46,186 nucleotides of DNA from Lactiplantibacillus songbeiensis (GTDB taxonomy: Bacteria; Bacillota; Bacilli; Lactobacillales; Lactobacillaceae): the NCBI RefSeq assembly GCF_005405125.1, contig NZ_BJDL01000031.1:1-46186 (forward strand). Reading direction: 5' to 3'. This document shows positions 5,607 through 41,302 of this stretch, in pieces. The notes beneath the pieces are model-generated. The model saw nothing but the letters and a program-made list of their open reading frames with translations, was not told where the DNA came from and ran no database searches. Position numbers and translations under genes: made by a program. Numbering within the stretch: the stretch's first letter is position 1; every line of letters begins with the position of its first letter.

Positions 5607-6120
5607 ACTTCCCACTCCGGTTGGGCTGGATTGATGCTGGAACGTGGTGGCCACGTTTTTGAGCCATGGAGCCGTCTCAAAAGCCGGGCTTTGACTAAGG
5701 CCGGGACAAATCACCCGGTCTAAGTCAAACGACACCACTGAGCATCATCCAGCCCGCCTACGCTAATCAACACTTAACTATAAACTATGGCGTTGAAATG
5801 CCTTTAGAACAAAGACACCTTAGTTACGGCTTTGAAAAGGCATTAAAACTAACTACACTGACTTGCCGTATCGACATCGACGACCCTGTCCTATTCAGCC
5901 AAGTCCAACTTAGCAAAAAATAATCGTTCATGTTTAAATACTCAGTCATTAACGCCGGGCGGTCCAGAATTGGCTCAGTGGTGTCGTTTATCTTAGTCGT
6001 GGTTTTCGACTTAGATAAAGCCCGATTTTCGAGACCGCCCTTTGGCTCGAAAACGTGGCCACCACGTTCCAGCCAATTCTGGACCAACCAGAGTGGCAAT
6101 TTAATCCAACTAGTTACGAC
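5607..6120. repeat. Composite palindromic element, locus 1 (class C forward + class B reverse)
   Basis: Two structured modules in inverted orientation. The forward class C module (about 5610-5766) has outer arms GGGCTGGATTGATGC and GCATCATCCAGCCC. The hairpin loop is CCATGGAGCCGT, and a long stem (5686-5728) carries a central A-A mismatch. The reverse class B module (5951-6100) has arms CCAGAATTGGCTC and AGCCAATTCTGG. A spacer of about 190 bases separates them and contains a 41-codon ORF. Forward means the strand reading GCTGGAACG. The same architecture recurs at other loci in this window. Confidence 0.85.
5798..5923 (+). other. Small ORF or gene remnant inside repeat spacer
   Basis: A 41-codon ATG-to-TAA frame in the spacer of the composite repeat, reading MPLEQRHLSYGFEKALKLTT at its start. 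The composition looks protein-like (mixed charged and hydrophobic residues, no low complexity). No ribosome binding site is visible, and the frame stays open for several codons upstream of the ATG. It could be the 3-prime remnant of a decayed gene into which the repeat inserted, or chance. I do not recognise it. Confidence 0.3.
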
Positions 6121-6210
6121 TTATTTAAAAATAAAATCATTTTAAGAACACCGGTATATCAGTCTTTCTAAAAAAATGTTAAGTCAACTAAAAAAAGTAG
6201 GGTCTTTCTA

Positions 6211-6239
6211 TTGCAACCGCTTACAAAAACTGTTAGTAT
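6211..6239 (+). promoter_or_regulatory. Promoter with overlapping cre for large ncRNA
   Basis: TTGCAA (6211-6216), a 17-nt spacer and TAGTAT (6234-6239) form a promoter. TGCAACCGCTTACA (6212-6225) matches the cre consensus TGNAANCGNNNNCA at every fixed position and covers the -35. The layout mirrors that of pflB, so CcpA repression of the transcript is predicted. Confidence 0.7.
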
Positions 6240-6246
6240 ACTAAGT

Positions 6247-6896
6247 GAGGAAAGGAATTACAACCTCGTTAGCAAGCTTCTCAATAAAGAGTTTGATAGA
6301 TGTCGCCAACACGTTAGACATCTAAGTTCCACAGGTTATGGTCGTTACCGAGACCAGTTCAGGCATTGCTTAGCGTTATCGGTTCAGCGAGTGTCGGGAG
6401 ATTTGCGTTGGATGACTGAACGTTGATCCTTGAATAAACGGTAACCGCATCACGTTTTAATTGGTGTTATCAAGACTATCTAGATTTAACTTTAAGAGTT
6501 GGAAACAGGTGTCGCCGATGACCAGATTTAAGTTCCACTAGTACCATGGTTCCTGAGATTTAAGTACCATTAGTACCAGTTCCATTGTAGGCTTAGGCAT
6601 TAAAAGTTTAAACGGAGGTGCATGTCTGTTACGAAGACATTACCAAGTTATAAACGCGAGTTCGACTTTCGTTAAAACCCGTTTGAAGAGTCACGAATCA
6701 AGTAAGGATTTACTTTTGATCGACTAAAGCAGATAGATACAATAAGTACGGGTTAGTCCGTTAGAAGTTGGACACACGTAAAATTGAATAGTATGAAGGT
6801 GTAACGCATTAAGAACACTGAACAACGTAATCTTGTTAACGGTGGTTATTCCTCATAAGTAGAACTCAAGTTGAGAAGCCTTGGGTTCTATTTTTT
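6247..6896 (+). ncRNA. Large structured non-coding RNA candidate (about 650 nt)
   Basis: The stretch has a promoter, a terminator and no credible ORF. Its ends pair: 6254-6276 (GGAATTACAACCTCG...) is complementary to 6832-6852 (...GGTGGTTATTCC) over about 20 base pairs with a few bulges, enclosing the whole transcript. Internal hairpins include AGATGTC/GACATCT near 6298-6323, GTTCAG/CTGAAC near 6382-6421, and ATGTCT/AGACAT at 6622-6640. A 28-30 nt direct repeat beginning AGATTTAAGT lies at 6524-6553 and 6556-6583. The size and closed multibranch layout recall the ornate large RNAs (ROOL, GOLLD) known from lactobacilli, but I cannot confirm membership from memory. It is not tmRNA, RNase P RNA or 6S RNA by visible motifs. 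Confidence 0.65.
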
Positions 6897-6897
6897 T
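6861..6897 (+). terminator. Terminator of the large ncRNA
   Basis: AGAACTCAAG pairs with CTTGGGTTCT (one G-T wobble), followed by seven T residues. Confidence 0.85.
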
Positions 6898-6987
6898 GTG
6901 CTTAGAAACTCGATTCGGAGCGGCTAGGACCGATACTGGTTAAACTTGCCACCTCCCACTATTCAAGATACCTTGCGATTTAGTGAC

Positions 6988-7019
6988 TTCGTGGTGTCAT
7001 ATATAATTGACATCATGAA
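6988..7019 (+). promoter_or_regulatory. Inverted-repeat operator over the -10 of the Xre-DUF3278 operon
   Basis: TTCGTGGTGTCA, an 8-bp spacer TATATAAT, then TGACATCATGAA. The two 12-bp arms match at 10 of 12 positions, and the spacer contains the -10 hexamer TATAAT (7002-7007). This is the expected place for an autoregulatory Xre-type repressor site. The -35 is weak. Confidence 0.6.
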
Positions 7020-7112
7020 CACCAGGGACTACACTTTAGGCGTCAAAAAATCAGTCGCCAGCTCTCAATCAAAAAAGCGCGACTGAAACGCTGCTATCAA
7101 GGAAGTCCTGCT

Positions 7113-7301
7113 TTGAATCAAGTCAAAAAATATCGTCAACAATCCCACCTGACTCAATTTCAGCTCGCTCAAAAAATCGGTGTTGCTCGTCAAACCATTA
7201 ATTTAATCGAAAACGACAAATATAACCCTTCACTGGATCTTTGTATTCACTTAGCTAGAATCTTACAAACAGATTTGAATCATTTGTTTTGGGAGGGATA
7301 A
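7113..7301 (+). CDS. Xre-family HTH regulator (small)
   Basis: A 62-residue protein that is almost entirely one helix-turn-helix domain. The Cro/C1 pattern is visible in LTQFQLAQKIGVARQTIN followed by ENDKYNPSLDLCIHLARIL. It starts at TTG, supported by AAGGAAG upstream. It is translationally close to the next gene: only two bases separate its stop from the following ATG. Small regulators of this type are commonly paired with DUF3278 membrane proteins. An inverted repeat over the promoter suggests autoregulation. Confidence 0.85.
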   Translation: MNQVKKYRQQSHLTQFQLAQKIGVARQTINLIENDKYNPSLDLCIHLARILQTDLNHLFWEG

Positions 7302-7303
7302 CC

Positions 7304-7834
7304 ATGGCAGGCAAAAAAAGTTTACGTGATACGATCGTCAAACACTGGTTTGGTATTTCTGGAACTTTTGATGAATATAAACGTCAAGAAGTGAATCGGA
7401 TTGGCACGAACGCTTTTATGCTTTTGCTGCCGTTCAGCTTCATTTCACTGTTTGTCGCTGGATTGACTGTTGCCAATCGTCCACAGGATGCCATCAGCAT
7501 TGTTATTTCACTTCAAGTTGGCTACTTCATGTTAGTCATTTGCCCCTACGTTCTACTTGCCTCACACCGTGCCCACATTACCGATACTGAAGTAACTACC
7601 CATGATCTCAAACAAGCCTACTTGCACATTGGACAAAAGATGAGCTTCAGTGCCGTTTACACTGGACTATGGTTTTATTTTCAAACTACCCTACTGGACC
7701 ATTACTTTGATGGCACTAACTTACTTCACACACTAACACAATGGCATTATATTTGGACTGGCATTTGGACCGGCGGCATCATGGGTATCATCATTGGTAT
7801 TCAGGCACTGATTCGACTAAAAAAATACCGTTAG
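7304..7834 (+). CDS. DUF3278-type membrane protein
   Basis: A 176-residue protein with four hydrophobic segments around residues 38-58, 64-86, 112-130 and 148-170 and a basic C-terminus (RLKKYR). An N-terminal cytoplasmic stretch of about 35 residues precedes them. The start at 7304 is chosen because GGGAGGG lies 7 bases upstream; a further in-frame ATG-like start at 7289 would overlap the regulator. Pairing with a tiny Xre regulator is the usual context for this uncharacterised family. Function is unknown. Confidence 0.7.
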   Translation: MAGKKSLRDTIVKHWFGISGTFDEYKRQEVNRIGTNAFMLLLPFSFISLFVAGLTVANRPQDAISIVISLQVGYFMLVICPYVLLASHRAHITDTEVTTHDLKQAYLHIGQKMSFSAVYTGLWFYFQTTLLDHYFDGTNLLHTLTQWHYIWTGIWTGGIMGIIIGIQALIRLKKYR

Positions 7835-7895
7835 TAACTCATAATCAATCAAATACAACATATACGTACCAGATAGTGCTAGCCTAACCATCTAC

Positions 7896-7932
7896 TGTAA
7901 TCGTTTACACAATCAGTCACAACCTTTATACT
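7896..7932 (+). promoter_or_regulatory. Aldo/keto reductase promoter with cre
   Basis: TGTAATCGTTTACA (7896-7909) is an exact match to the cre consensus and contains the -35 TTTACA (7904-7909). A 17-nt spacer leads to -10 TATACT (7927-7932). CcpA repression is predicted. Confidence 0.75.
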
Positions 7933-7960
7933 AGAGGAACTAACAAGGAGGTTTTTTAAC

Positions 7961-8881
7961 TTGAAAACACTCAATTTAGGTCAAAGTGGCTTGCAAGCTT
8001 CCACCGTTGCCCTGGGGATTATGCGTATGAATGCCCTCACTGTGGATCAAGCCACGACTGTGTTGGAATCCACTGTTGATTTAGGGATCAACTACATTGA
8101 TTCCGCGGATATTTATGGTAATGGTGACTCTTCTAAAATTTTTGGTGCCGCTTTAAAGCAAGCAAATGTTAACCGCGACAATCTTTATATTCAATCTAAA
8201 GGTGGGATTGTCCCAGGGAAACGTTATGATTTCTCCAAGCAACATATCCTTGATGCTGTAGATGGCGAATTACAACGGCTAGGCGTGGATTACCTCGACA
8301 CCTTTCTCTTGCACCGTCCTGACCCATTGATGGACCCTAGCGAAGTCGCAGACGCCTTTAACGCACTACAGGCTAGTGGTAAAGTCCGCCATTTCGGCGT
8401 TTCTAACTTTAATCCCATGCAGGTTGACTTATTGCAATCAGCTTTGAGTCAACGCTTAATGATCAACCAACTCCAATTCGGCATCATGCATACTGGAGCC
8501 ATTGATTTCGGACTACACACCAATATGCAAGATGACCGCAGTCTTAATCATGATGGCGAAATCATTGAGTATTCACGGTTACATCACATGACGATCCAGG
8601 CTTGGTCCCCTTATCAATATGGGATGTTTGCCGGAATCTTCCTCGATAATCCGAAGTTTCCAAAGCTAAATGCTGCCATGCAAACCTTAGCTGATGAAAA
8701 ACAGACGACTAAGTCAGCCATCGCAACTGCTTGGATCTTACGTCATCCGGCTAACATGCAAGTTATCCTAGGCACAATGAATCCTAAACATCTCGCCGAG
8801 AATGCCGCTGGCGCCGATATCGACTTAACCCGTCAGGAATGGTATGACATCTACTTCGCTGCTGGTAACGATTTGCCATAA
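7961..8881 (+). CDS. Aldo/keto reductase (YdhF-like)
   Basis: A 306-residue NAD(P)H-dependent oxidoreductase of the aldo/keto reductase barrel family. The catalytic tetrad is visible: Asp and Tyr in YIDSADIYG (about residues 47 and 52), Lys in IQSKGG (about 80) and His in LLHRPDP (about 114). It starts at TTG, with AAGGAGG about nine bases upstream. It is monocistronic, with its own cre-overlapped promoter and terminator, so it is probably expressed when preferred sugars run out. The substrate cannot be read from the sequence. Confidence 0.92.
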   Translation: MKTLNLGQSGLQASTVALGIMRMNALTVDQATTVLESTVDLGINYIDSADIYGNGDSSKIFGAALKQANVNRDNLYIQSKGGIVPGKRYDFSKQHILDAVDGELQRLGVDYLDTFLLHRPDPLMDPSEVADAFNALQASGKVRHFGVSNFNPMQVDLLQSALSQRLMINQLQFGIMHTGAIDFGLHTNMQDDRSLNHDGEIIEYSRLHHMTIQAWSPYQYGMFAGIFLDNPKFPKLNAAMQTLADEKQTTKSAIATAWILRHPANMQVILGTMNPKHLAENAAGADIDLTRQEWYDIYFAAGNDLP

Positions 8882-8883
8882 TA

Positions 8884-8920
8884 AAAAAGGTTCGAGCCGA
8901 AATTGACTCGAGCCTTTTTT
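8884..8920 (+). terminator. Aldo/keto reductase terminator
   Basis: AAGGTTCGAG pairs with CTCGAGCCTT, followed by T6. Confidence 0.85.
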
Positions 8921-9112
8921 AGGTTGGAGGTAGCGCCCTAATTTCACTCAGTGACACCCTTTTTCTTAATTTTATCGCAAGATTCTTTAAATCGCGCTAA
9001 AATCAAGTTTTTATATTTCGAGTTTATACTAAAATGCGCTATCATTAACAGTATAAGACCAACTTTTATTATGCCATTCAATTAAACTGCAATTATCAAG
9101 GGGAGCCCTGCC

Positions 9113-9556
9113 ATGTCAAAATTTAATATCTCACTCGTTAGTGCCGACCGCGCCAAAGCGATGCTAACGGAATATAAGGAACAACGTAAAAATTCCGTTC
9201 CACAGCTAACAGCACCTGGTCGCTACATTTTACCAGATTACAAAATGACGCGACGTCGGGCTGCTTTTAAAATTGTGAAGCATACCTTCTTGACGCCACA
9301 CTACAAATCCTACGTTGCCCTGGACTCTGACAATGGGCACACCTTGTGGATGCGTAACTTCGGCTCATTGACAGAAGCCCTATTCTGGTTAGAAACTGGA
9401 CTTAAAATCAGTGATACCGACTCCCACTCCAATTATAAAGAGTGGAGCGACAAGCACACCGCTGAAATTGCGACCTTCAAAGATCTTTTACGGCAACGTC
9501 CGAAAGCTAAGCAAAAGAAGATCGGCAAAAAAGCTGTTAAGAAACCCAATAAATAA
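9113..9556 (+). CDS. Conserved hypothetical protein, basic
   Basis: A 147-residue soluble protein that I do not recognise. It is strongly basic, with a lysine-rich tail (KAKQKKIGKKAVKKPNK), a basic MTRRRAAFKIVKHTF patch in the middle, and an aromatic segment containing LWMRNFGSLTEALFWLETGL. No signal peptide or membrane segment is seen. A ribosome binding site (AAGGGGAG) and terminator frame it as a single-gene unit. The charge suggests nucleic-acid contact, but that is only a guess. Confidence 0.65.
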   Translation: MSKFNISLVSADRAKAMLTEYKEQRKNSVPQLTAPGRYILPDYKMTRRRAAFKIVKHTFLTPHYKSYVALDSDNGHTLWMRNFGSLTEALFWLETGLKISDTDSHSNYKEWSDKHTAEIATFKDLLRQRPKAKQKKIGKKAVKKPNK

Positions 9557-9557
9557 C

Positions 9558-9597
9558 AAAAAACGGCATCGACTTTCAAGTCAACGCCGTTTTTTTG
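9558..9597 (+). terminator. Terminator after hypothetical protein
   Basis: AAAAAACGGC...GCCGTTTTTTT hairpin with a GACTT/AAGTC inner stem. Confidence 0.8.
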
Positions 9598-9804
9598 ATG
9601 TTCAATATACTGATGCCCATAATCCCCATAATTAATGGTCATTAGCTAGAACATCCCCCAAAAATAATGACTAACCCAATCTCTTTTGACCGTGGTATGC
9701 CGACCACTGATGACTTATGTTTAAAACACAGGTCAAGTATATGAGCTTGGTGTAAATCTACGACCATTTCAAAGTAAAGTTATTGTATAGATTTTGTAAA
9801 GTAG

Positions 9805-10192
9805 CACACTTGGGGCTAGTTAAAATTGCCGCCTACCGGTTGGTTTCTAAAACGCTGGAACGCCATGGGCCATTTTGAAGCCAAAGAACGGTCTTCAAAA
9901 CTGGCCTTGGTCTAAGTCCGAGTAGACCACTCGCACTAAGGCCAACGACACGGCTGAGCATTTTAGAAACCAACCTCTCGGCTAAATGTATGGATTTAAT
10001 GATAACTATCCGATAATTAACGACGGGCGGGCCAGAATTGGCTCAGTGGTGTCGTTTATCTTAGTCGTGGTTTTCCGACTTAGATAAAGCCCGGCTTGTG
10101 AGACCGCCCCTTGGCTCACAAACGTGGCCACCACGTTCCAGCCAATTCTGGGCCAACCAGAGTGACAAGTAAAATCCAACTAGCACCAAACG
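9805..10192. repeat. Composite palindromic element, locus 2 (class A forward + class B reverse)
   Basis: Full-length composite. The class A module (about 9826-9987) has outer arms GGTTGGTTTCTAAAACGC and GCATTTTAGAAACCAACC, hairpin TTTTGAAG/CTTCAAAA with loop CCAAAGAACGGT, and a long stem with an A-A mismatch. The class B module (about 10021-10170, reverse) has hairpin stem TGTGAG/CTCACA with loop CCAAGGGGCGGT. The outer ends are inverted copies of CTTGGNGCTAGTTNNA. The bases between 9643 and 9804 hold nothing I recognise. Confidence 0.85.
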
Positions 10193-10202
10193 TAACGTAC
10201 AC

Positions 10203-10251
10203 AAAAACCCGGTTAATTGTGCCTGAAAGGCAATGCAATTAACCGGGTTTT
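10203..10251 (-). terminator. BCCT gene terminator (bidirectional)
   Basis: A 15-16 bp stem AAAACCCGGTTAATTG with its complement, with T-rich ends on both strands. Confidence 0.85.
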
Positions 10252-10276
10252 ATTGAACTTTGTTTTCAGAAACAGT

Positions 10277-16744: not shown

Positions 16745-16869
16745 AAAAAATCGACCGACGCCACCACAAAGCGAGTTGTGGTGGTATCGATCGACTCAAT
16801 TCGCTTATAGTCCAGTGTTTACGGCACTGGGTAGAAACTCGCCATCCATATCATGGCATTATATAGGCA
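16745..16869 (-). promoter_or_regulatory. Purine riboswitch (guanine-type) with terminator
   Basis: The minus strand reads TATATAATGCC, then the conserved GTTTCTACC and CCGTAAACAC loops, then GGACTATAAG. This is the three-way-junction purine aptamer (16801-16869). The specificity base in GACTAT is C, which is characteristic of guanine/hypoxanthine-binding members; adenine binders have GATTAT. A terminator follows (16745-16793: ATCGA...CCACCAC/GTGGTGG...TCGAT, then T6). Ligand binding should stop transcription of the adenine deaminase gene. Confidence 0.9.
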
Positions 16870-16894
16870 ATTCATTTATTTTTGATTGTCCGTA

Positions 16895-17050: not shown

Positions 17051-17370
17051 CACGCTTGATGTTAATTACCGCCTACCGATTGATTTCTTAAACATTGGAA
17101 CGCCATGCGCCATTTTAAAGCTAAGACTGAACATTTTAGAAACCAACCACTCAGCTAAATGACCGGACTAAGAATAATCAACAGTTAACTTTTTAATACC
17201 GTTATTTAACGTCGGGCGGACCAACATTGGCTCAGTGATGTCGTTTATCTTGGTCGGTAGTTTTCCGACCTAGATAAAGCCCGGCTCTTGAGACCGCACT
17301 ATGGCTCAAAAACGCGGCCACCACGTTCCAGCCGATGCTGGCCCAACCAGAGTGGCAAGTAAACAACCAA
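17051..17370. repeat. Composite palindromic element, locus 3 (degenerate)
   Basis: A class A forward module with an internal deletion (about 17068-17160: left arm, CGCCATGCGCCATTTT, then directly the right arm CATTTTAGAAACCAACC) and a full class B reverse module (17211-17361). The B hairpin stem is TTGAG/CTCAA around loop CCATAGTGCGGT (read forward). The ends are more decayed than at other loci. The remaining gap bases, 16924-17050, show nothing further. Confidence 0.8.
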
Positions 17371-20178: not shown

Positions 20179-20433
20179 AAAAATCGTCCCCATTGTTCAC
20201 TAAGAACAACAGGGACGATTAGACTAGTCGCGGTACCACCCAGGTTGAGGATTGATGAAACAATCCCCCACTCACTAGAAGATAACGGTTCTAGTTATTA
20301 CCCGTTTCAAGTTTGAAAAGCCGTTACCGTATTTCAACCACAGCTCCTGATCGGTTCGCAGCAACCACCGACTTCCTGACACCCAGACCTGCATCTACTT
20401 GATGTAACGTTCAACGCTCAATATATTAACTTG
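20179..20433 (-). promoter_or_regulatory. T-box leader, tyrosine specifier
   Basis: Minus strand. Stem I is closed by GTTAC (20404-20408) and GTAAC. The distal loop contains GGAAGTCGGTGGTTGCTG. The specifier loop reads GAAATACG, with UAC at 20329-20331 directly before the closing strand. The antiterminator T-box GGGTGGTACCGCG lies at 20229-20241. The terminator AATCGTCCC/GGGACGATT with T6 is at 20179-20220. Uncharged tRNA-Tyr should allow read-through into the transporter. Confidence 0.92.
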
Positions 20434-20590: not shown

Positions 20591-20920
20591 ACGCTTGGTG
20601 TTAGTTGAACTTGCCGCCTACCGGTTGGTTCCTAAAACGCTGGAACGCCATGGGCCAACGACACGGCTGAGCATTTTAGAAACCAACCTCTCGGCTAAAT
20701 GAGTCGGTTAAATAATTTAACATTAATTGACAATTTTCCAGTAGTTAACGTCGGGCGGGCCAGAATTGGCTCAGTGGTGTCGTTTATCTTAGTCGGTGAT
20801 TTTCCGACTTAGATAGAGCCCGGCTTCCGAGACCGCACTGTGGCACGAAAACGCGGCCACCACGTTCCAGCCAATTCTGGCCCAACCAGAGTGGCAATTT
20901 AAGCCAACTAGCACCAAACG
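20591..20920. repeat. Composite palindromic element, locus 4 (A deleted + B full)
   Basis: The class A forward module has lost its interior: the left half ends CGCCATGGGCCA and continues directly as ACGACACGGCTGAGC. This is consistent with recombination between two GGCCA copies. Class B reverse (20750-20899) is complete, with a TTCCGAG hairpin arm. The inverted ends are ACGCTTGGTGTTAGTTG and CAACTAGCACCAAACG, flanked on both sides by AATATT. Confidence 0.85.
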
Positions 20921-20943
20921 TAACAATATTAAATAAGCCAGTT

Positions 20944-21003
20944 AGCGGGGACTGGGCTGGATGACGTTCAGCAGCATCATTCCAGCCCAACCGGAGCGGC
21001 AAA
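20944..21003 (-). repeat. Class C repeat remnant
   Basis: On the minus strand GGGCTGGAATGATGCTG joins directly to CTGAACGTCATCCAGCCC. This is the outer helix of a class C module with the whole interior missing. It abuts locus 4 and the 3-prime end of the CPBP protease gene. Confidence 0.7.
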
Positions 21004-23170: not shown

Positions 23171-23336
23171 GTTAACAACGGGCGGCCCAAAATTGGCTCA
23201 GTGGTGTCGTTTATCTTAGTCATGGTTTTCGACTTAGATAAAGCCCGGCTTTTGAGACCGCTCTATGGCTCGCAAACGTGACCACCACGTTTCAGCCGAT
23301 TCTGGGCCAACCAGAGTGACATTTCACACCAAACGT
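23171..23336 (-). repeat. Palindromic element, locus 5 (class B only)
   Basis: A complete class B module in reverse orientation, with arms CCAAAATTGGCTC and AGCCGATTCTGGG. It ends near CACCAAACG. The class A partner is absent, leaving only the linker CGTTAGTTAACAACGGGCGG. The outer arms are partly mismatched, suggesting decay. Confidence 0.8.
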
Positions 23337-25800: not shown

Positions 25801-25955
25801 TGATCAGTCTGTTCGCCGTGTCGAGACACTTAGCTGGGTGATTTTTGCCCAGGTTAGTGTCTGGGCCGACTTTTAAGACGTGGTTTTTGGCTTGAAAGCG
25901 CCCTGCAGACCGCAGTTTGGCTGCAGGGTCCGCCCCACCGCGAACAGACTGATCA
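25801..25955 (-). repeat. Palindromic element, class D
   Basis: Perfect 16-bp outer arms TGATCAGTCTGTTCGC and GCGAACAGACTGATCA. Read on the minus strand, the hairpin CCCTGCAG/CTGCAGGG carries loop CCAAACTGCGGT. A long stem, AGACACTAACCTGGG with CCCAGCTAAGTGTCT, contains the A-A mismatch. CGACACGGC then precedes the right arm. A second hairpin is CTTTCAAG/CTTAAAAG. Only short motifs are shared with classes A-C, yet the layout is the same. Confidence 0.75.
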
Positions 25956-28375: not shown

Positions 28376-28777
28376 GCACACTTGGTGCTAGTTGGTTTAA
28401 ATTGCCGCCTGCCGGTTGGTTCCTAAAATGCTGGAACGCCATGGACCATTTTGAAGCCAAAGTTCGGTCTTCAAAACTGGCCTTGGCCTAAGTCCGAGCA
28501 GACCACTCGCACTAAGGCCAACGACACGGCTGAGCATTTTAGGAACCAACCTCTCGGCTAAATTTGTGGTCGACAATAGATCATCATTAATTCACGTTAA
28601 TTAACGACGGGCGGGCCAGAATTGGCTCAGTGGTGTCGTTTATCTTAGTCGGTGATTTTCCAACTTAGATAAAGCCCGGCTTTCGAGACCGCACTGTGGC
28701 TCGAAAACGTGGCCACCACGTTCCAACCGATTCTGGACCAACCAGAGTGGCGATTTAAACCAACTAGCACCAAGCGT
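28376..28777. repeat. Composite palindromic element, locus 7 (best-preserved A + B)
   Basis: The cleanest copy. Terminal inverted repeats at 28381-28406 and 28749-28774 agree at 25 of 26 positions. Class A forward (28404-28562) has perfectly complementary outer arms GGTTGGTTCCTAAAATGC and GCATTTTAGGAACCAACC, with loop CCAAAGTTCGGT. The linker holds CGTTAATTAACG. Class B reverse (28605-28757) has loop CCACAGTGCGGT in a TTTCGAG/CTCGAAA stem. It ends ten bases before the stop of the next gene. Confidence 0.9.
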
Positions 28778-29360: not shown

Positions 29361-29393
29361 TTAATCACTAAAACGATTATGGGGAGTTTTATA

Positions 29394-30710
29394 ATGAAAA
29401 AAATGGCCACTATTTTGGGGTTAGCTGGCACCGTGGCAGCAGTCGCGTTCACGACGCCGACCATTGCCCATGCTTACGACACCATCAGTAATCAATCTAC
29501 GCAAAACTACACCGCCCGTTTTGTGAATCAAGCAAAAACGAACGATGGTATTTATAAATACGGTATCTATAATACCAGTCGATCAACGACCACTCGTGAT
29601 TTAAACGGTAGTAACTGGGAGCATAGCTTCATTAAAGTCACCCAACAAGCGACTACGGCTAGTGGCACTTGGGTCAAGTTCAGCTATTATGGTAAGAATA
29701 TTGGCTGGGTCAAGAAGAGCGCCATTGAACCCTACTCCGTGAAGCAAAACGCCATTGCCTTAATTGACAAGTATCACTACCGCGGCACCGCGATGCTGAT
29801 CAAGAACTACGCCAGCAATAGTGTCACCGCTTCGACCGGCTACGCCTACTACGGTGGTCGCAAGTTGAATACTAACGAGACCGTTTATCCAACCGCATCA
29901 CTACAAAAAGTCATCACCGCGGCCATTATCGTCCAACTCGTTAATGAACATAAGTTAACGCAATACACTCGGCTCAGTAAGTTCTATCCGAACATCAAAA
30001 CCAGTGCCAATATTACGATTCGGCAACTGCTTGACCATAATTCTGGTTTAGAACAAGAAAACGAAGAAATTGATCCTGGTAAGTTTTTAACTGAAGCACA
30101 AGCCGTTCAATATGCCATCAGTCAATTGAACGCGACTGGTGCCGGTAAGCATCACTATACCAACGCTAACTACATTATTTTAGCAGGTATCATTCGACAA
30201 TTAACCGGAAAATCCTTGGAAGAAAACGTGCAGAGTCGGATTATTAATAAGCTCGGTTTAACCCACACTTACTTTTATAATACGATTCCAGCTAACTTAA
30301 CCCCCGCCGTTAGTTATAAATACGTAGATGGCAAGAATTACCAATACTATCCACTAACGACGAACTTGCTCTCTTCCTTGACCGGGGCCGGCAATATGTA
30401 TATGTCGCCTGCTGATTATTACACCGTTCAAAAAGGCTTGCGGAATGGTAAGATCTTAAATAAGAGCGATTATTATTACTTATCCAATCACTACAAATAC
30501 GCCTACGATGGTGGCATGTGGCACATTAAGAGCAACCACATGAAATACAGTTCCGGCAGTCTACGCAACACCGGCGTGACAACCCACATGTACTTGTCCG
30601 AGGGTAATAAGACCGGCGTCATTTTCTTCTCTAATCAAAAAGGTACCGGCACCACAACTGCCGATTTGACTGAAAAAACACTTTATCGCCTCGTTCAATA
30701 CTACATGTAA
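29394..30710 (+). CDS. Secreted serine hydrolase with N-terminal SH3-like domain
   Basis: A 438-residue exported protein. The signal peptide ends near TIAHA (about residue 27). An SH3-like wall-binding segment spans about residues 35-105 and includes GTWVKFSYYGKNIGWVKKSA. A class C beta-lactamase/DD-peptidase fold follows, with nucleophile motif TASLQK (S-x-x-K), HNSG, and YTN (Y-x-N). Role: probably a D,D-carboxypeptidase-like or esterase enzyme at the cell wall; true beta-lactamase action is not implied. The start at 29394 has GGGGAG upstream; an ATG at 29379 overlaps that site. It is related in fold to the hydrolase at 951-1937. Confidence 0.85.
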   Translation: MKKMATILGLAGTVAAVAFTTPTIAHAYDTISNQSTQNYTARFVNQAKTNDGIYKYGIYNTSRSTTTRDLNGSNWEHSFIKVTQQATTASGTWVKFSYYGKNIGWVKKSAIEPYSVKQNAIALIDKYHYRGTAMLIKNYASNSVTASTGYAYYGGRKLNTNETVYPTASLQKVITAAIIVQLVNEHKLTQYTRLSKFYPNIKTSANITIRQLLDHNSGLEQENEEIDPGKFLTEAQAVQYAISQLNATGAGKHHYTNANYIILAGIIRQLTGKSLEENVQSRIINKLGLTHTYFYNTIPANLTPAVSYKYVDGKNYQYYPLTTNLLSSLTGAGNMYMSPADYYTVQKGLRNGKILNKSDYYYLSNHYKYAYDGGMWHIKSNHMKYSSGSLRNTGVTTHMYLSEGNKTGVIFFSNQKGTGTTTADLTEKTLYRLVQYYM

Positions 30711-30744: not shown

Positions 30745-30901
30745 AACTTACCACTCTGATTGGTCCAGAATCGGCTGGAACGTGGTGGCCGCTGAGCCAA
30801 TTCTGGCCCGCCCGGCGTTAGTTAACGGGAATTAATGATTATCTATTATCGACCACAGATTTAACCAACCGGCAGGCGGCAATTTCAACTAGTACCAAGC
30901 G
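30745..30901. repeat. Palindromic element, locus 8 (internal deletions in both modules)
   Basis: The class B forward module runs from GGTCCAGAATCGGCTGG to ACGTGGTGGCCGC, then jumps straight to TGAGCCAATTCTGGCC, losing about 85 internal bases. The partner A module (reverse) is reduced to its tip, AACCAACCGGCAGGCGGCAA. The outer helix and the inverted ends are kept. Confidence 0.75.
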
Positions 30902-33536: not shown

Positions 33537-33561
33537 AAGCGAAACTAACTCGCCTTAATCC

Positions 33562-34607: not shown

Positions 34608-34630
34608 TTCTTTATTAGAACGTTAAAAGA

Positions 34631-35577: not shown

Positions 35578-35593
35578 AATTTAATCACAACTC

Positions 35594-35626
35594 AAAAAAT
35601 CAGCGACTAACTTCGCTGATTTTTTA
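35594..35626 (+). terminator. SDR gene terminator
   Basis: AAAAAATCAGCG/CGCTGATTTTTT stem and loop. Confidence 0.85.
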
Positions 35627-35775
35627 ATACGCTTTTCATTTTTAACCCCTTCAAATTAGGCTTTTAAAATCACGAACCTTTTGCGTTGACCCTACTAAAC
35701 TGCGGTGTTAAATTTAAGACTCATTTTGAAAATAACTCGGGTTTTCTGACCCAGTTTTCAAGGAGGCGCCACCTA

Positions 35776-36228: not shown

Positions 36229-36236
36229 AAAATAAT

Positions 36237-36863
36237 CTAATCCTGTGAATCGAGAATCTGTTTTAGCGCGGCTAAATCAGCATTAACGGTTGGCAGGATT
36301 TTTTTGAACCGTCGACTATATGACGGATGATACAACGGAAAGAGGCGGTAATTGACCGTGGTTAATTCAAAACGCTGGTCAGCTGTTGACCATTGGCGAA
36401 TCGGCTGGGTTAATAATTGGCCATGCACCGCACTGATTTTGACTTTGGGTCCCAATAATCGCTGTAACCCGGTATTCCCCAATGGCACCAGTAGCCGATC
36501 TGGCAACTGCTGTAATTCAACATCTAGAAGTGGCGCACTGGCTGCAATCTCGGCTGGTGTTGGGCGCCGATCCCGTTTTAATCCCGTCGGTCCTAACTGG
36601 TAAGGCCGTGAACGAACTGCACCAGTTAAATAGACTTCTGAGCGCGTCAACCCAAGTGCCGCTAACCAGCGATCCAATTCTTTGCCAGCTGGGCCTTGAA
36701 AGGGGTGGCCAACCTGGGCTTCCACTTTTCCAGGCGCCTCTGATACCATCACTAAAGCTGGGGTTAAACTCCCCTCACCTGGCACAAACCCTTCTAAATG
36801 GTCAAATTGCGTTAGTAAAGCACGCCCCTGTGCTTGCTGTGTGGTTGTTAAAAAACTAGTCAT
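36237..36863 (-). CDS. Uracil-DNA glycosylase, family 4-like, without Fe-S ligands
   Basis: A 208-residue protein of the uracil-DNA glycosylase superfamily. Motif A appears as VSEAPGKVEAQVGHPFQGPAG, and motif B as LYHPSYSRRF with its catalytic-type His. The middle segment EVYLTGAVRSRPYQ matches the position where family 4 enzymes have a ligand Cys (KCRP), here Ser. The protein contains no cysteine at all, so the 4Fe-4S cluster of typical family 4 enzymes is absent. It probably still excises uracil from DNA, but activity should not be assumed. Confidence 0.82.
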   Translation of the reverse strand: MTSFLTTTQQAQGRALLTQFDHLEGFVPGEGSLTPALVMVSEAPGKVEAQVGHPFQGPAGKELDRWLAALGLTRSEVYLTGAVRSRPYQLGPTGLKRDRRPTPAEIAASAPLLDVELQQLPDRLLVPLGNTGLQRLLGPKVKISAVHGQLLTQPIRQWSTADQRFELTTVNYRLFPLYHPSYSRRFKKILPTVNADLAALKQILDSQD

Positions 36864-36939
36864 TTGAATCCCTCCGATTGTTTACTTCATCCTTCTAATA
36901 ATATTGCGATTATCCGGAAGTACCTGTTTACGATACTAC

Positions 36940-36983
36940 AAAGCCCTACACCGTTCATAGTTGCGTAAACGGGTAGGGCTTTC
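36940..36983. terminator. Terminator downstream of the DMT transporter gene
   Basis: AAAGCCCTAC/GTAGGGCTTT with inner CGTT/AACG. It lies between the UDG gene start and the transporter 3-prime end and can act on the minus strand. Confidence 0.8.
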
Positions 36984-36995
36984 GTCTTAAAGTGA

Positions 36996-37910
36996 CTATT
37001 CTATTCCAGGTTCACTCCGGTAACGTTGCAAGATATAAATCGCCAGTACCACTAAAACAGAACCAATGATCTCAACGACACTAACCTTTAGATTCAAGAA
37101 AATAATGCTTAAGACAAATGTCACGACTGGTTGCACGGCATCCACAATGCTAACAACCGCAGAAGGCGCGTATTGCAAACTGTGTAGTAGGGATAAGAAT
37201 GCAAAAATCGTCCCAATCAACACAATCGCCCCAATTGAGATCACTAGTTTCGGTGTAATTGCTGGCGCTCCAATCCATAACGGATGATAAGTATTGAATA
37301 AAATTCCGGCAATCAAGGTCCCCCAGCCTAGAATGACGACTGGCGAGTTTTCAGCGACAATTTTCCGTGGTAACACCACGTATAACGCGGCTGTAACCCC
37401 TGATAAGATTCCCCAGACCAATGCATCGGTCGGAATAGCCAACTCATGGATATTCCCCCGCGTAATGGCTAAGAAGACCCCTAGTAAGGATACCCCGAAA
37501 GCTAGCATATCTGTTCGTAAAGGCAGTTCCCGTTTAAATACCAGCGTTCCTAACACGATGAATAATGGACTTAAGTATTGCAGAATTGTAGCTGCCGCCG
37601 CGGTTCCACGTTCAATACTGACATAGAACGTATACATATTCGCCATCAAGCCCAATGTCGCATACGCAACTAATTGCGCGATTGACCACCATGACTTAAA
37701 GACTTTAAAGATGCCACGCCCTTGTTGCATCGCACCGATTGCTAACAAGATGACCCCGGCAGATAAGGTCCGGACCGATAAGAACCAGTCAGCCGGAATG
37801 GCTTGGTTCTGAGAGACAAACTGCATGACCGTCCCCGAGATTCCCCATAAAGTCGAGGCGAGCATCGCCCACATGATACCCTTCATATAACGATTAGTTG
37901 TTGTTTGCAA
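36996..37910 (-). CDS. EamA/DMT-family transporter
   Basis: A 304-residue membrane protein with ten hydrophobic segments in two repeated EamA halves; the second starts near VWGILSGVTAALYVVLPRKI. The conserved MWAMLASTLWGISGT opening and the YTFYVSIERGTAAAATILQYLSPLFIVL segment are typical of drug/metabolite exporters. It starts at TTG with GAGGT upstream. The substrate is unknown. It is monocistronic. Confidence 0.87.
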   Translation of the reverse strand: MQTTTNRYMKGIMWAMLASTLWGISGTVMQFVSQNQAIPADWFLSVRTLSAGVILLAIGAMQQGRGIFKVFKSWWSIAQLVAYATLGLMANMYTFYVSIERGTAAAATILQYLSPLFIVLGTLVFKRELPLRTDMLAFGVSLLGVFLAITRGNIHELAIPTDALVWGILSGVTAALYVVLPRKIVAENSPVVILGWGTLIAGILFNTYHPLWIGAPAITPKLVISIGAIVLIGTIFAFLSLLHSLQYAPSAVVSIVDAVQPVVTFVLSIIFLNLKVSVVEIIGSVLVVLAIYILQRYRSEPGIE

Positions 37911-38058
37911 TTTTCATGACCTCAATCTAATTAATGGCAATATTATACCGGGGCTTGATTAAAGTTTCCTGAAAATTATCGTTTTATTTTCAACAAAAAA
38001 ATAGCGGGTACCGCCATTTTTGACGTCCTACTATCATTACAGAATTGATAATTATAAC

Positions 38059-38757
38059 CTAGAACAAAGTCCCAATATAGTAGTGAATAAACATCGTAAT
38101 AATCCCGACAATCACGTTACGAATAACGGCGGTCTTAACATTGCCTTTACCCAAAACTGCGGATAAATAACCGGTCAGTGCCACTGATAGCGACACGGCT
38201 AGAATGGTGCCTGGCCACTTCATCGCATTCGGCAAAAACGTCATCGCCACTAATGGGAAGACGCCTCCCGCTGAAGCCGAGAATAATGATGAAAATGCGG
38301 CGTCCCAAGGATTCATATAATGGCCTAATTGCATATCATATTTAATACTGATCATGGTTTCAAGTGGCTTCTTAGCTAACAGATCATCTGCAATCGCCAA
38401 TGCAGTCTTTTCGGTCACGCCTAGCGTCATATAATGCCGTTTAACCGCGGCGACTTCATCAGCATAATTCGTCTTCAGTAGCTGGCGTTCCTTTTCAACC
38501 ACGGCTTTTTCCGTATCCTTTTGGGTACTAACAGACGCATATTCCCCACCAGCCATTGAAAACGCACAGGCTAATAGGTCTGATAACCCAGCAATAAAAA
38601 TCGTAAATTGATTACTCGTTGCCGCGGCAACACTAAATAACACGCCGACAACGGTTAAAATGCCATCATTGGAGCCCAATACACCAGCACGCAGTGTATT
38701 GAGCTTTTCGTCCATCGTTTGTTTAGCCTTTTTAGGCTTTGATTTTGACATTAACAT
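38059..38757 (-). CDS. VIT/CCC1-family metal transporter, paralogue 2
   Basis: A 232-residue membrane protein of the vacuolar iron transporter family, which moves Fe(II) or Mn(II). The conserved first segment LRAGVLGSNDGILTVVGV and the acidic cytoplasmic loop are visible. MAGGEYASVSTQKDTEKA carries the Glu expected in the metal-binding region. Five membrane segments are predicted. It lies 18 bases downstream of a paralogue in the same operon. A weak terminator (GCGG/CCGC, 37997-38021) follows. Confidence 0.87.
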   Translation of the reverse strand: MLMSKSKPKKAKQTMDEKLNTLRAGVLGSNDGILTVVGVLFSVAAATSNQFTIFIAGLSDLLACAFSMAGGEYASVSTQKDTEKAVVEKERQLLKTNYADEVAAVKRHYMTLGVTEKTALAIADDLLAKKPLETMISIKYDMQLGHYMNPWDAAFSSLFSASAGGVFPLVAMTFLPNAMKWPGTILAVSLSVALTGYLSAVLGKGNVKTAVIRNVIVGIITMFIHYYIGTLF

Positions 38758-38775
38758 GTAATGATCCCCCTCAAC

Positions 38776-39453
38776 CTATGCGAACAAGTGACCAATAAAG
38801 TAAGTCACCAGCATCGTCAACAATCCTGAAATCACGTTGCGGACAACACCATGCCGCCAATCAGAATTACCCAACTTGGCCGCCACAAATCCCGTAATCG
38901 ATAACGCAATCGCCACCGCAATAATCGTTGCTAAGATCTTAACTTGTGGTGGAAAGAACGTAATCGAAACTAGTGGCAAGATTGAGCCGGTTGGAAATGA
39001 AATCATCGAGGCGATCCCAGCCGCATAGGGACTGATAAATTGGCTTGGATTAAAACCATACCGTTCACGCACGGTCGTGACTAACGCATCTTCTTGCATC
39101 ATTTCTTGGGTCGCCTGTTGCGCTAACGGGGTACTAATCCCTTGATCCACATATTTTTTAGTGACCATTGCGACTTGACCGTCATAGTCCGCTTTTAAAG
39201 CGGCCCGTTGATGACTAATGGCCATCTTTTGCGCATCTTTTTGCGTATTGACGGAGACATACTCGCCCATCGCCATCGAAATCGTCCCAGCCAACATCCC
39301 AGCTAAACCAGAAATCAAGATTGAGTAACTGTTGGTTGTCGCACCCGCGACCCCGACAACAATCCCGGCTACGGATAAGATCCCATCATTTGCCCCCATC
39401 ACGCTCGCCCGCAAAATATTGACGCGTTGTGCCAAGGTCATTTTCTTTTTCAT
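38776..39453 (-). CDS. VIT/CCC1-family metal transporter, paralogue 1
   Basis: A 225-residue protein of the same family as its downstream neighbour. It carries LRASVMGANDGILSVAGI, then MAMGEYVSVNTQKDAQKM, then a helical loop with repeated Glu and Met residues (TQEMMQEDALVTTVRERYG). The tandem pair suggests a heterodimer or two metals. In a Mn-accumulating lactobacillus, Mn(II) or Fe(II) export from the cytosol is plausible. A Fur/PerR-type box lies at the promoter. A leftward GGGGGCGG sequence precedes the ATG at 39453. Confidence 0.87.
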   Translation of the reverse strand: MKKKMTLAQRVNILRASVMGANDGILSVAGIVVGVAGATTNSYSILISGLAGMLAGTISMAMGEYVSVNTQKDAQKMAISHQRAALKADYDGQVAMVTKKYVDQGISTPLAQQATQEMMQEDALVTTVRERYGFNPSQFISPYAAGIASMISFPTGSILPLVSITFFPPQVKILATIIAVAIALSITGFVAAKLGNSDWRHGVVRNVISGLLTMLVTYFIGHLFA

Positions 39454-39476
39454 ACTGCCGCCCCCAAGTAACTACT

Positions 39477-39528
39477 TTATAATCATTATCATGTAATACA
39501 TGTTATTCCTTTAGTGGCTGAATTGCAA
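39477..39528 (-). promoter_or_regulatory. VIT operon promoter with Fur/PerR-type box
   Basis: Minus-strand -35 TTGCAA (39523-39528), 17-nt spacer, -10 TAACAT (39500-39505). TTATAATCATTATCA (39477-39491) matches the PerR consensus TTATAATNATTATAA except at one position. It covers the expected start of transcription, so repression by a Fur-family protein is predicted. Confidence 0.7.
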
Positions 39529-39623
39529 GCCTAATACCAATTAACTAATTAACTAAAGTTTTGTATCCCTAAAACTAAACCTAGTGTAACATCAATTTAA
39601 AAGTAACGTTATGTAAACATAAC

Positions 39624-39660
39624 AAAAAACCAACTAACTTTACACAAGTCAGTTGGTTTT
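39624..39660 (-). terminator. Choloylglycine hydrolase terminator
   Basis: AAAACCAACTGACTT/AAAGTTAGTTGG stem on the minus strand with T6. Confidence 0.85.
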
Positions 39661-39673
39661 AACCAATAGTCAT

Positions 39674-40660
39674 CTAATTAACATTATTAAATTGTTGTGC
39701 CGTTGCCAACGTAAATTCAGTTGGTTGCGCTGCGGTCATCAATTCTGGCGTCAAGGCAACCCGCGTGATCGTTTGGTCGTTGTAAGGTTGCATATAAAAA
39801 GCCGGTTCAGACATGCTCATGTACGACCGATATTGCGTATAATCCACTGAGCCATCCGCTTTAATCTTAACACCCTTTGGAATTTCGACCGAGTTCAACA
39901 TATGTGACAGCGCGTTAACTGCGGCACTCGTTGTCGCGACTGCTTCCGTATGTTCACGCATAAAGACCGTCCGCACAAAACGAGATGGTGACGTAAAATC
40001 ACCCGGCATTCCTAATGCACCCGTACCAGGACCAAAGGCATTAACCGTTAAATCGCCATATTGACGATTGGCATGCTGTTCAGGTTGTAATTGAACATAG
40101 TTACTTAAGTTCTTTAAATGCCAACCGAAATCAGGTGAATTCGTCATCACACCAACTGGATTCTTCATGTAGTGCATGCCATCAGATTGTTGTTCCAAAA
40201 CGTAAGTTGCACCACTCTTGTCACTGATAATCCAGTGTAAGGGTACGACAATGTTCAATAATGGGGCTTTAGCTTCTACGATCGTTAAGTTAGCTAAGCG
40301 GTCCCCAAGTTCTTGGGTACTCTTAACATTACCTAAAATCCACATCAAAACTTCATGCGGTGCCAGATTAATCTGACCATCGACTGGAGCGGCAGCATAA
40401 TGCGCTTGCCCAGCAAAGTATAAAGCCGCTGCGCTGACGCCATATTCATTGACCCCGTCGACATGAATATAGCCATCTAAATTACGCCCGGTACCGACAA
40501 AACTATACGGTGCGTCAAATCCGGTCTGATTAGTAACACTGCTAAAATGATGGTGGCGTGGCATCGCAACCGGGCGACCACCCAATTCAAAGCCAAAATC
40601 CATCGTCCGAGCTAAGAACTGGTCACCGCCCGTCGTTTGATACGTTAAACTAGTACACAT
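39674..40660 (-). CDS. bsh3: Choloylglycine hydrolase family (penicillin/acyl-homoserine acylase or bile salt hydrolase)
   Basis: A 328-residue N-terminal nucleophile hydrolase. After removal of Met1 the catalytic Cys2 is exposed (M-CTSLTYQ). Other active-site residues are visible: Arg18 and Asp21 in LARTMDF, Asn in MTNSPDF (near 175), and Arg in PSRFVRTV (near 228). Length and sequence agree with my memory of the third Bsh paralogue of L. plantarum, which is thought to be mainly an acylase rather than a strong bile salt hydrolase. It is monocistronic; the left neighbour is the VIT operon and the right neighbour a repeat locus. Confidence 0.87.
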   Translation of the reverse strand: MCTSLTYQTTGGDQFLARTMDFGFELGGRPVAMPRHHHFSSVTNQTGFDAPYSFVGTGRNLDGYIHVDGVNEYGVSAAALYFAGQAHYAAAPVDGQINLAPHEVLMWILGNVKSTQELGDRLANLTIVEAKAPLLNIVVPLHWIISDKSGATYVLEQQSDGMHYMKNPVGVMTNSPDFGWHLKNLSNYVQLQPEQHANRQYGDLTVNAFGPGTGALGMPGDFTSPSRFVRTVFMREHTEAVATTSAAVNALSHMLNSVEIPKGVKIKADGSVDYTQYRSYMSMSEPAFYMQPYNDQTITRVALTPELMTAAQPTEFTLATAQQFNNVN

Positions 40661-40770
40661 AGGGACTCACTTCCTTGATTTGAATACCTTTATTTTAGCA
40701 CCCCAAACCCGTTAAAACACAGATTTGCGCTAAATATTTTACTATTATCAGTTTATTCTGTGGCTTTTCG

Positions 40771-41302
40771 TTTAGCTAGACTAAATTAGATTGCCGCTAC
40801 GGGTGGGCTGGCTTGACGCTGGAACGTGGTGGCCACGTTTGGAAGCCATAATGCGGTCTCCCAAGCCGGGCCTTGACTAAGGAATTCACCCGGTCTAAGT
40901 CAAACGACACCACTGAGCGTCATCCAGCCCGCCCTGCGCTAATAACAACCGAAATTGTGATGTGGATTCAACCAGAAACAGTTTTCTGCAAATTTATTTG
41001 AACGTGCTTATGCCAAAATATTAATCACTAATCACTCACAAACACTACCATCCTCAATCAATAATTCTTTCACCTATACTTGAACAGTTCTTTTTAATCC
41101 ATAATTATCGATTAGACAACCACTACGCTCCAGATTCACTACAATTAACTAACGCCGGGCGGGCCAGCATTGGCTCAGTGGTGTCGTTTATCTTGGTCGG
41201 TGATTTTCCGGCCTTAGATAAAGCCCGGCTTTCGAGACCGCACTGTGGCTCGAAAACGCGGCCACCACGTTCCAGCCAATGCTGGCCCAACCAGAGTGGC
41301 AA
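40771..41302. repeat. Composite palindromic element, locus 9 (class C forward + class B reverse)
   Basis: Class C forward (40790-40945) has arms GGGCTGGCTTGACGCT and AGCGTCATCCAGCCC, loop CCATAATGCGGT and the long stem TTGACTAAGG/CCGGTCTAAGTCAA. Class B reverse (41153-41302) has arms CCAGCATTGGCTC and AGCCAATGCTGG. Note that the B arms here read GCATTGG instead of GAATTGG, on both sides. A spacer of about 205 bases contains no gene. Confidence 0.85.

What the first reader, a model, noticed from the sequence alone, without database searches (positions are those of the whole stretch)
5607..41302. Interspersed composite element family with structure conserved across four sequence classes
At about ten intergenic loci (5.6, 9.8, 17.1, 20.6, 20.95, 23.2, 25.5, 25.8, 28.4, 30.7, 40.8 kb) the same module recurs. 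It has an outer helix, a hairpin with a 12-nt loop of form CCANNNNNCGGT, a long stem with one fixed A-A mismatch, and CGACAC just before the right arm. Stem sequences differ between classes A-D but stay complementary. Examples of the hairpin stem are TTTTGAAG/CTTCAAAA, TGTGAG/CTCACA, TTTCGAG/CTCGAAA and CCCTGCAG/CTGCAGGG. Covarying stems with a constant loop and a constant mismatch indicate selection on folded RNA or single-stranded DNA. I know of no named family that fits.
Basis: partly seen in the sequence, partly recalled or inferred. Interest (0 to 1): 0.88.

Follow-up and report, generated by a model that had tools for sequence, protein, structure and literature searches.

The report
Paired hairpin mini-transposons of lactobacilli
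Lactobacilli carry up to hundreds of copies of a small gene-less mobile DNA built from two facing, intricately folded hairpin units whose shape is kept while the letters change; in this genus a common jumping gene (IS982 type) has the same end sequences and probably moves it, but what the folded core does is unknown.

Summary
The window (a Lactiplantibacillus, nearest L. dongliensis) holds 13 full and about 6 damaged copies of a 150-nt module that folds as a three-way junction. A covariance model gives 77 copies in 400 kb of this genome and hits in 58 of 201 Lactobacillaceae genomes (12 of 40 genera), almost none outside. Covariation is overwhelming; the constant parts are an internal loop GGAAC/TG and one A·A mismatch. 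Three facts change the reading. (1) The unit is a convergent pair of modules: 78 of 81 neighbours. (2) A-B composites end in ACGCTTGGTGCTAGTTGA, identical over 18 bp to both ends of an intact IS982-family IS in a related species, with 7-9 bp target duplications: a MITE. (3) Pairs are Watson-Crick with 1.6% G·T and no less A·C, so the fold looks kept in DNA, not RNA. IS and composite share only the ends; other genera carry the core with other ends. Best reading: a non-autonomous element with a conserved folded DNA core, moved by IS982 here. No transposase with these ends was seen in this genome, and the core's job is unproven. New variant of a known kind.

The parts
5608..5764 (+). class C module, left half of a C>..<B composite
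   Evidence: R1 139.8 bits
5952..6100 (-). class B module, right half of the C>..<B composite; absent at this site in G008
   Evidence: R1 169.7 bits
9806..10193 (.). A>..<B composite (MITE) with IS982-type terminal inverted repeats at both ends
   Evidence: TIR pair
9825..9980 (+). class A module
   Evidence: R1 133 bits
10020..10169 (-). class B module
   Evidence: R1 164.1 bits
17065..17153 (+). class A module, internally deleted
   Evidence: R1 16.6 bits; sequence
17209..17359 (-). class B module
   Evidence: R1 161.6 bits
20582..20590 (.). left target-site duplication AACAATATT
   Evidence: perfect 9-bp direct repeat
20591..20921 (.). A>..<B composite with TIRs ACGCTTGGTGTTAGTTGA / ACGTTTGGTGCTAGTTGG
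20610..20693 (+). class A module with both inner hairpins deleted
   Evidence: R1 49.9 bits
20748..20898 (-). class B module
   Evidence: R1 166.8 bits
20922..20930 (.). right target-site duplication AACAATATT
20945..21003 (-). class C module with inner hairpins deleted
   Evidence: R1 23.4 bits; a C with its inner hairpins at the matching site of G008
23175..23323 (-). class B module; remnant of an AB composite that is inverted at the same site in G008 / L. dongliensis
   Evidence: R1 153 bits
25534..25685 (+). class B module facing class D
   Evidence: R1 146.5 bits
25804..25955 (-). class D module: long outer helix, two tandem P2-type hairpins, P3 with A·A (four-way junction)
   Evidence: (32.2 bits)
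28378..28777 (.). A>..<B composite with TIRs and imperfect 9-bp target duplication (7 of 9)
28401..28556 (+). class A module
   Evidence: R1 135.3 bits
28604..28754 (-). class B module
   Evidence: R1 165.4 bits
30747..30818 (+). class B module with inner hairpins deleted
   Evidence: R1 52.8 bits
30885..30902 (-). right terminal inverted repeat of the damaged 30.7-kb composite
40790..40939 (+). class C module
   Evidence: R1 133 bits
41152..41303 (-). class B module
   Evidence: R1 164.4 bits

Best explanation
The repeats are halves of a non-autonomous mobile element. Each element is two 150-nt modules of different classes facing each other; each module is an imperfect palindrome that can fold as a three-way junction (outer helix P1 with an invariant GGAAC/TG internal loop, hairpin P2, hairpin P3 with an A·A mismatch). 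In Lactiplantibacillus, A-B and E-F pairs lie inside terminal inverted repeats of IS982 type, so an IS982-family transposase acting in trans moves them and leaves a 7-9 bp target duplication (shown: shared ends, target duplications, plasmid carriage; inferred: that this transposase moves them). The fold is kept at DNA level, as a single-stranded or cruciform T-shaped hairpin at each end, because only masters with the fold spread (inferred from near-pure Watson-Crick covariation and lack of a sense-strand G·T excess). A likely role is recognition by the transposase or a host DNA-binding protein while the ends are single-stranded, for example at replication forks (inferred; weakest step).
For: Pairing: 78 of 81 module neighbours within 1 kb are convergent. 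Ends: ACGCTTGGTGCTAGTTRR with up to one mismatch occurs 134 times in the own genome, 0 for the reversed pattern; in the window and 400 kb of own genome 35 of 46 TIR-like hits lie directly outside a module, 0 hits in a shuffle of one strand. Target duplications: for 40 TIR pairs (37 own-genome, 3 from G008 loci; a few share an end) mean identity at 9 bp is 0.433 against 0.31 shuffled, maximum of 500 shuffles 0.378; perfect at 7 bp 5 of 40 (shuffles: mean 0.18, maximum 3 of 5000), at 8 bp 0, at 9 bp 2 (mean 0.05, maximum 2); a G003 composite has ATACTGAT on both sides. Partner: IS982-family transposase (NF033520, 219 bits, cut-off 130) of 289 aa in G014, IS 958 bp, one copy with duplication ATCAATT, both ends identical over 18 bp to the A-side end of A-B composites (B side differs at the last base); a broken G008 copy has ends ACGCGTTGTGCTAGTTAA, 17 of 18 as at a G003 composite. 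IS and composites share only the ends, and no module lies in 8 IS loci. Covariation. DNA rather than RNA: 17 G·T and 22 A·C in 1053 core cells, against 53 G·U in 761 tRNA pairs; within own-genome classes G·T/A·C = 14/15, 42/88, 9/17. Pieces on 26 plasmid records of Lactiplantibacillus and Ligilactobacillus.
Against: No transposase with these ends was found in the window's own genome: its two DDE_Tnp_1 hits lack the TIR within the 1.5-kb flanks, and only 0.65 Mb of it was searched with the IS proteins, without a hit. No transposition was observed. No base-alignable empty site was seen; L. mudanjiangensis (L043) shows no element by eye at the 23-, 25.5- and 28.4-kb sites, but its flanks are too diverged. 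Class C ends show no TIR (0 of 12), and other genera carry other ends, so IS982 cannot explain the whole family. Most target duplications are degraded, 2 of 40 at 9 bp equals the highest shuffle, and most other IS copies printed show no clear duplication. The tRNA control is weak on A·C because ARAGORN draws no A·C pairs. In class B, A·C exceeds G·T (88 to 42, p 7e-5, relatedness ignored), which could be a subfamily effect or a preference for the other strand.
Confidence: 0.65

Rival explanations
1. Structured RNA: each module is a transcribed RNA (regulator, terminator-like 3' element or RNA guide) and the stems covary because the RNA must fold.
For: Strong covariation and an invariant internal loop GGAAC/TG (34 of 34 at four of its seven positions, 33 of 34 at the other three); modules are more frequent between convergent genes (13 of 32 gaps) than tandem (28 of 126) or divergent ones (9 of 48).
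Against: G·T about 1.6% of core pairs and not above A·C; no Rfam match; 78 of 81 pairs convergent, so any one transcript reads one module in sense and the other in antisense.
Confidence: 0.13
2. The covariation is a by-product: arms are kept complementary by hairpin-templated correction or slippage (quasi-palindrome conversion), without selection on the fold.
For: Double Watson-Crick changes are common within class B (147 cells against 192 single-change cells); recurrent loss of the inner hairpins shows that the palindromes are processed in the cell.
Against: Such correction should erase mismatches, yet the A·A mismatch (32 of 34) and the GGAAC/TG internal loop (33-34 of 34) persist across the sampled genera.
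Confidence: 0.1
3. The module pair is the true mobile unit with its own, unidentified enzyme; IS982 ends were acquired secondarily in Lactiplantibacillus, and other genera use other ends.
For: The core is found in 12 genera while outer ends differ: a GRTTCTTTCTTAANTTNGNTTAGTGT-like end on both sides in G167; 12 of 12 class C ends lack the TIR; IS982 elements occur in G002, which has no module hits.
Against: No enzyme tied to the core was found; the target duplications sit at the IS982-type ends, not at the module ends; some B partners of C modules do have TIR-like flanks (L129, L130); a direct-repeat look at 9 pairs from other genera was inconclusive.
Confidence: 0.3

Closest known systems
IS982-derived MITE MITECca01 of Cardinium cOegib (PMC9769881, passages read)
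   Same: about 240-bp gene-less element with ends like an IS982-family IS, 169 copies, 3.5% of the chromosome, mostly intergenic
   Different: [quoted passage not shown] here the body shares nothing with the IS tested and is a covarying module pair found in 12 genera
REPINs / BIMEs (PMC3116915 and PMC3733652, passages read; PMC2817692, search listing only)
   Same: high-copy intergenic palindromes whose replicative unit is an inverted doublet with spacer; 93% of 430 doublets inverted; compensatory changes; ssDNA hairpins
   Different: REPs are 20-40 bp, often GTAG-tagged and tied to RAYT tyrosine transposases; here the unit is a 150-nt three-way junction, and the Lactiplantibacillus form has IS982 (DDE) ends and target duplications
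Bacillus cereus repeats bcr1-bcr18 (PMC6542083, passages read)
   Same: 100-400 bp interspersed repeats with mobile features, restricted to one bacterial group
   Different: mobility linked there to a TTTAT motif, at most 130 copies of bcr1; no IS982 ends mentioned in the passages read
Parvovirus-type T-shaped terminal hairpins (recalled, no call)
   Same: about 150-nt terminal palindromes with two inner arms, inverted at the two ends
   Different: shape only; no replication protein, no linear replicon and no homology shown

Membership tests
MITE (non-autonomous IS-related element) | terminal inverted repeats shared with an autonomous IS | tested here: met
   A-B composites: 18 of 18 bp with both ends of the G014 IS982; a G003 composite end agrees 17 of 18 with the G008 IS982 ends. 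Not met for class C ends (0 of 12)
MITE (non-autonomous IS-related element) | target-site duplication | tested here: met
   7-9 bp; mostly degraded
MITE (non-autonomous IS-related element) | no transposase gene | tested here: met
   longest ORF-like stretch 42-89 aa in 5 composites
MITE (non-autonomous IS-related element) | body derived from the parent IS | tested here: not met
   3 IS against 5 composites: only the ends match beyond chance; not required by all definitions (recalled)
MITE (non-autonomous IS-related element) | mobilised in trans | not testable with these tools
   needs a transposition assay
REPIN / BIME | inverted doublets as the unit | tested here: met
   78 of 81 convergent
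REPIN / BIME | 20-40 bp palindrome | tested here: not met
   modules are about 150 nt
REPIN / BIME | RAYT (Y1) transposase | not tested
   target duplications point to a DDE enzyme instead
Known structured RNA family (Rfam 15) | match at the gathering score | tested here: not met
   none on the modules at E<=10 either
Structured RNA in general | G·U pairs tolerated on the sense strand more than A·C | tested here: not met
   17 G·T and 22 A·C; 14/15, 42/88, 9/17

The most novel reading that the evidence does not exclude
A Lactobacillaceae-wide selfish DNA family whose conserved part is a pair of facing three-way-junction hairpins with invariant unpaired recognition features, and which swaps its transposon ends from genus to genus so as to use whichever IS transposase is active: a structured, end-swapping parasite of insertion sequences.
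Probability: 0.28. Interest if true: 0.82.

Novelty: new variant of a known kind. Interest (0 to 1): 0.62.

Why it matters
Gene-less mini-transposons normally keep only their ends. Here a large internal DNA shape is conserved by compensatory change across 12 genera of food and gut bacteria, at perhaps 600 modules in this genome by extrapolation, with an invariant internal loop that looks like a binding site. That makes a testable case of selection on DNA secondary structure in a bacterial mobile element, and supplies a covariance model that annotates an apparently unnamed repeat also seen in L. plantarum and on L. pentosus and L. salivarius plasmids.

Tried and rejected
RNA reading: set aside as the main reading for lack of G·U and of sense-strand bias. 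Arm correction without selection: disfavoured because the mismatch and internal loop persist. Autonomous copies as long TIR pairs: 9 pairs of 0.7-4 kb in the 2.7 Mb held at that time were composites, or two composites flanking ordinary genes, with no transposase-like ORF by eye (one looked at closely). An IS5 next to a TIR fragment in pL1277-1 turned out to have its own ends and to sit in a damaged composite. ISLre2 (PF06782): no hit, but its control also rang nowhere, so it says nothing. Phages and IMG/VR: no match to the sequences tried; the first plasmid search, with an A-B composite, found nothing, the later one, with an E-F composite, 26 records. Ends in genus g4: a 56-base query found nothing in plasmids, and a direct-repeat look at 9 pairs from G167, G116 and G151 was inconclusive, with controls giving similar lengths. 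A parvovirus-like replicon was considered from shape alone and kept only as an analogy. Ten literature searches gave no listing that names this repeat; the library lacks most subscription papers and all bioRxiv preprints.
Full report
What is there. The window belongs to a Lactiplantibacillus: its MutY is 95% identical to that of L. dongliensis and 85% to that of L. mudanjiangensis. Repeats at the stated places were found mechanically. Each full copy folds alone into an outer helix P1 carrying hairpins P2 and P3. A covariance model R1 built from 12 window copies scores those 12 at 133-170 bits and adds damaged copies and the divergent class D. In the same genome the search returned 150 matches, the cap, all with E below 1e-32. 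In 400 kb taken from contigs C1, C7 and C10, 77 copies on the proper strand were kept, about 580 if the whole 3.03 Mb is like these contigs, which were not chosen at random.

Distribution. R1 rings in 22 of 60 genomes, own included, in 4 of 34 genera. A broader model R2, from 34 diverse copies, rings in 58 of 201 Lactobacillaceae genomes, own included, 12 of 40 genera (stricter filters, so a lower bound). In a class-wide sample of 250 genomes only the own genome and one marginal hit (E 2.9e-4) rang. Named hosts seen around mutY include L. plantarum, L. plajomi, L. modestisalitolerans, Lacticaseibacillus brantae, Lapidilactobacillus wuchangensis and Secundilactobacillus oryzae. Plasmids of Lactiplantibacillus (19 records) and Ligilactobacillus (7) carry pieces. 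Rfam has no such family.

The unit is a facing pair. Among 222 module hits (some from overlapping loci; identical pairs counted once), 78 of 81 neighbours within 1 kb are convergent, 2 tandem, 1 divergent. Partners are mostly of different classes: A with B at about 48-58 bp and C with B at about 50-550 bp, and two other classes, called E and F here, at up to about 580 bp in genomes G003, G005, G016 and G019, whose composites resemble those on L. plantarum and L. pentosus plasmids.

Ends and target sites. A-B composites of about 400 bp begin and end with ACGCTTGGTGCTAGTTGR. The pattern with up to one mismatch occurs 134 times in the genome and its reversed control never. Flanking 9-mers of 40 TIR pairs agree at 0.433 against 0.31 for shuffled pairings, maximum 0.378 of 500. 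Perfect duplications: 5 of 40 at 7 bp (shuffles mean 0.18, maximum 3 of 5000), 0 at 8 bp, 2 at 9 bp (mean 0.05, maximum 2); with at most one mismatch 5, 6 and 7 of 40. The window composite 20591-20921 has AACAATATT on both sides. E-F composites of about 740-960 bp mostly begin ACGCRTTGTGCTAGTT, and one in G003 has ATACTGAT on both sides.

A matching IS. A search for DDE_Tnp_1 in 7 genomes followed by a TIR scan of 30 loci found IS982-family elements whose ends match. In G014 a 958-bp IS has an intact 289-aa transposase (NF033520 219 bits; PF13612), ends ACGCTTGGTGCTAGTTGA on both sides and the 7-bp duplication ATCAATT; a second G014 copy has one altered end and no clear duplication. In G008 a broken copy has ends ACGCGTTGTGCTAGTTAA and duplication TAAGCCT. 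G002, which has no module hits, has a related IS without a clear duplication. The A-side ends of A-B composites match G014 at 18 of 18, the B side at 17; a G003 composite end matches G008 at 17 of 18. BLAST of 3 IS against 5 composites shows only these ends shared beyond chance, and no module lies in 8 IS loci. So A-B and E-F composites are MITEs whose body does not come from the IS tested. In the own genome no such IS was found: its two DDE_Tnp_1 hits have no such end in their flanks, and tblastn of 0.65 Mb gave nothing.

The core outlives the ends. In other genera the flanks differ. G167 and less clearly G116 show another end, roughly GRTTCTTTCTTAANTTNGNTTAGTGT, in G167 on both sides of the pair; G018, G034, G031 and Lapidilactobacillus loci show no IS982-type end by eye. 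A direct-repeat look at 9 such pairs was inconclusive. In this genome 0 of 12 class C modules have a TIR-like end within 60 nt (flanks), though some of their B partners do. The structured pair is therefore separable from its IS982 ends, and wider in distribution. That is the basis of the end-swapping idea, which remains an inference.

Covariation and its nature. On 34 diverse copies aligned by sequence only, with the structure taken from one window class, 83.4% of 1794 cells pair (60.2% shuffled), the covariation score is 0.563 (0.167 +- 0.009 shuffled; at most 0.165 when slid by 1-3) and 50 of 55 pairs show changes on both sides. The measure 'further pair types' does not stand out (129 against 123.6; 75 of 500 shuffles as high). 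The rows include several copies per genome, so they are not independent. In 31 core pairs there are 999 Watson-Crick, 17 G·T, 22 A·C and 15 other cells; 35 tRNAs from the same loci have 53 G·U of 761 (ARAGORN draws no A·C, so only the G·U share is comparable). On a model-fitted alignment of 81 other-genome rows there are 3584 Watson-Crick, 111 G·T (79 of them at one constant position), 120 A·C and 173 other. Within the own genome, single changes give G·T/A·C of 14/15 (class A), 42/88 (B, p 7e-5 ignoring relatedness) and 9/17 (C). No level shows the sense-strand G·U excess expected of RNA. In a facing pair each strand carries one module in sense and one in antisense, so strand symmetry is what a DNA-level constraint predicts; the class B excess of A·C is not explained.

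What is constant. The internal loop of P1, GGAAC on one side and TG on the other, is invariant in 33-34 of 34; the A·A mismatch of P3 is A·A in 32 of 34. The 12-nt P2 loop is constant in this species (12 of 13) but not outside; in E modules it is replaced by an added stem. Persistent mismatches argue against simple templated correction of the arms.

Decay and movement in place. Inner hairpins are lost again and again (20610-20693, 20945-21003, 30747-30818; G008 at the 25.5- and 30.7-kb sites). Of 8 sites compared with G008 by BLAST or by eye, the composite is inverted in place at two (9.8 and 23 kb), as expected of recombination between long inverted arms, and at 5.6 kb G008 keeps C but lacks B. 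No base-alignable empty site was seen.

Verdict. Observation confirmed; structural claim confirmed; RNA reading disfavoured. The element is a new variant of a known kind: a MITE by ends and target sites, REPIN-like in its inverted doublet, unlike both in its conserved three-way-junction core. IS982-derived MITEs are in print (PMC9769881, passages read). Ten searches of the open library gave no listing that names this repeat.

Noticed in passing
window 25804-25955 (-): Class D carries two tandem P2-type hairpins and a long outer helix, i.e. a four-way junction. Relatives over about 170 nt at 76-82% identity lie in own-genome loci L201, L140, L122, L206 and L123.
   Followed up: partly
window 16788-16886 (-): Purine riboswitch, 73.8 bits, beside the damaged composite at 17.1 kb.
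   Followed up: no
window 20208-20423 (-): T-box-leader-like stretch, 72.6 bits, below the family's gathering score of 93, upstream of an NhaC-type antiporter gene on the minus strand.
   Followed up: no
window 9806-10193 and about 23.1-23.3 kb: The composite is inverted in place between this genome and G008 / L. dongliensis at two of eight compared sites.
   Followed up: partly
G000 contig ends (C9, C17, C18, C29, C8, C12, C10, C27): These eight contigs of the draft assembly begin or end inside or at the edge of a composite: the repeat appears to fragment the assembly.
   Followed up: no
L210 1171-1970 (plasmid pL1277-1): An IS5-type transposase element sits next to the remains of an E-F composite end.
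   Followed up: partly
window 29379-30707 (+): Serine beta-lactamase/DD-peptidase-like protein with a below-cut-off match to a GW/SH3 domain model near its N-terminus.
   Followed up: no
own-genome class B modules: Single-change A·C cells outnumber G·T 88 to 42: a subfamily effect or a hint that the other strand is the folded one.
   Followed up: no
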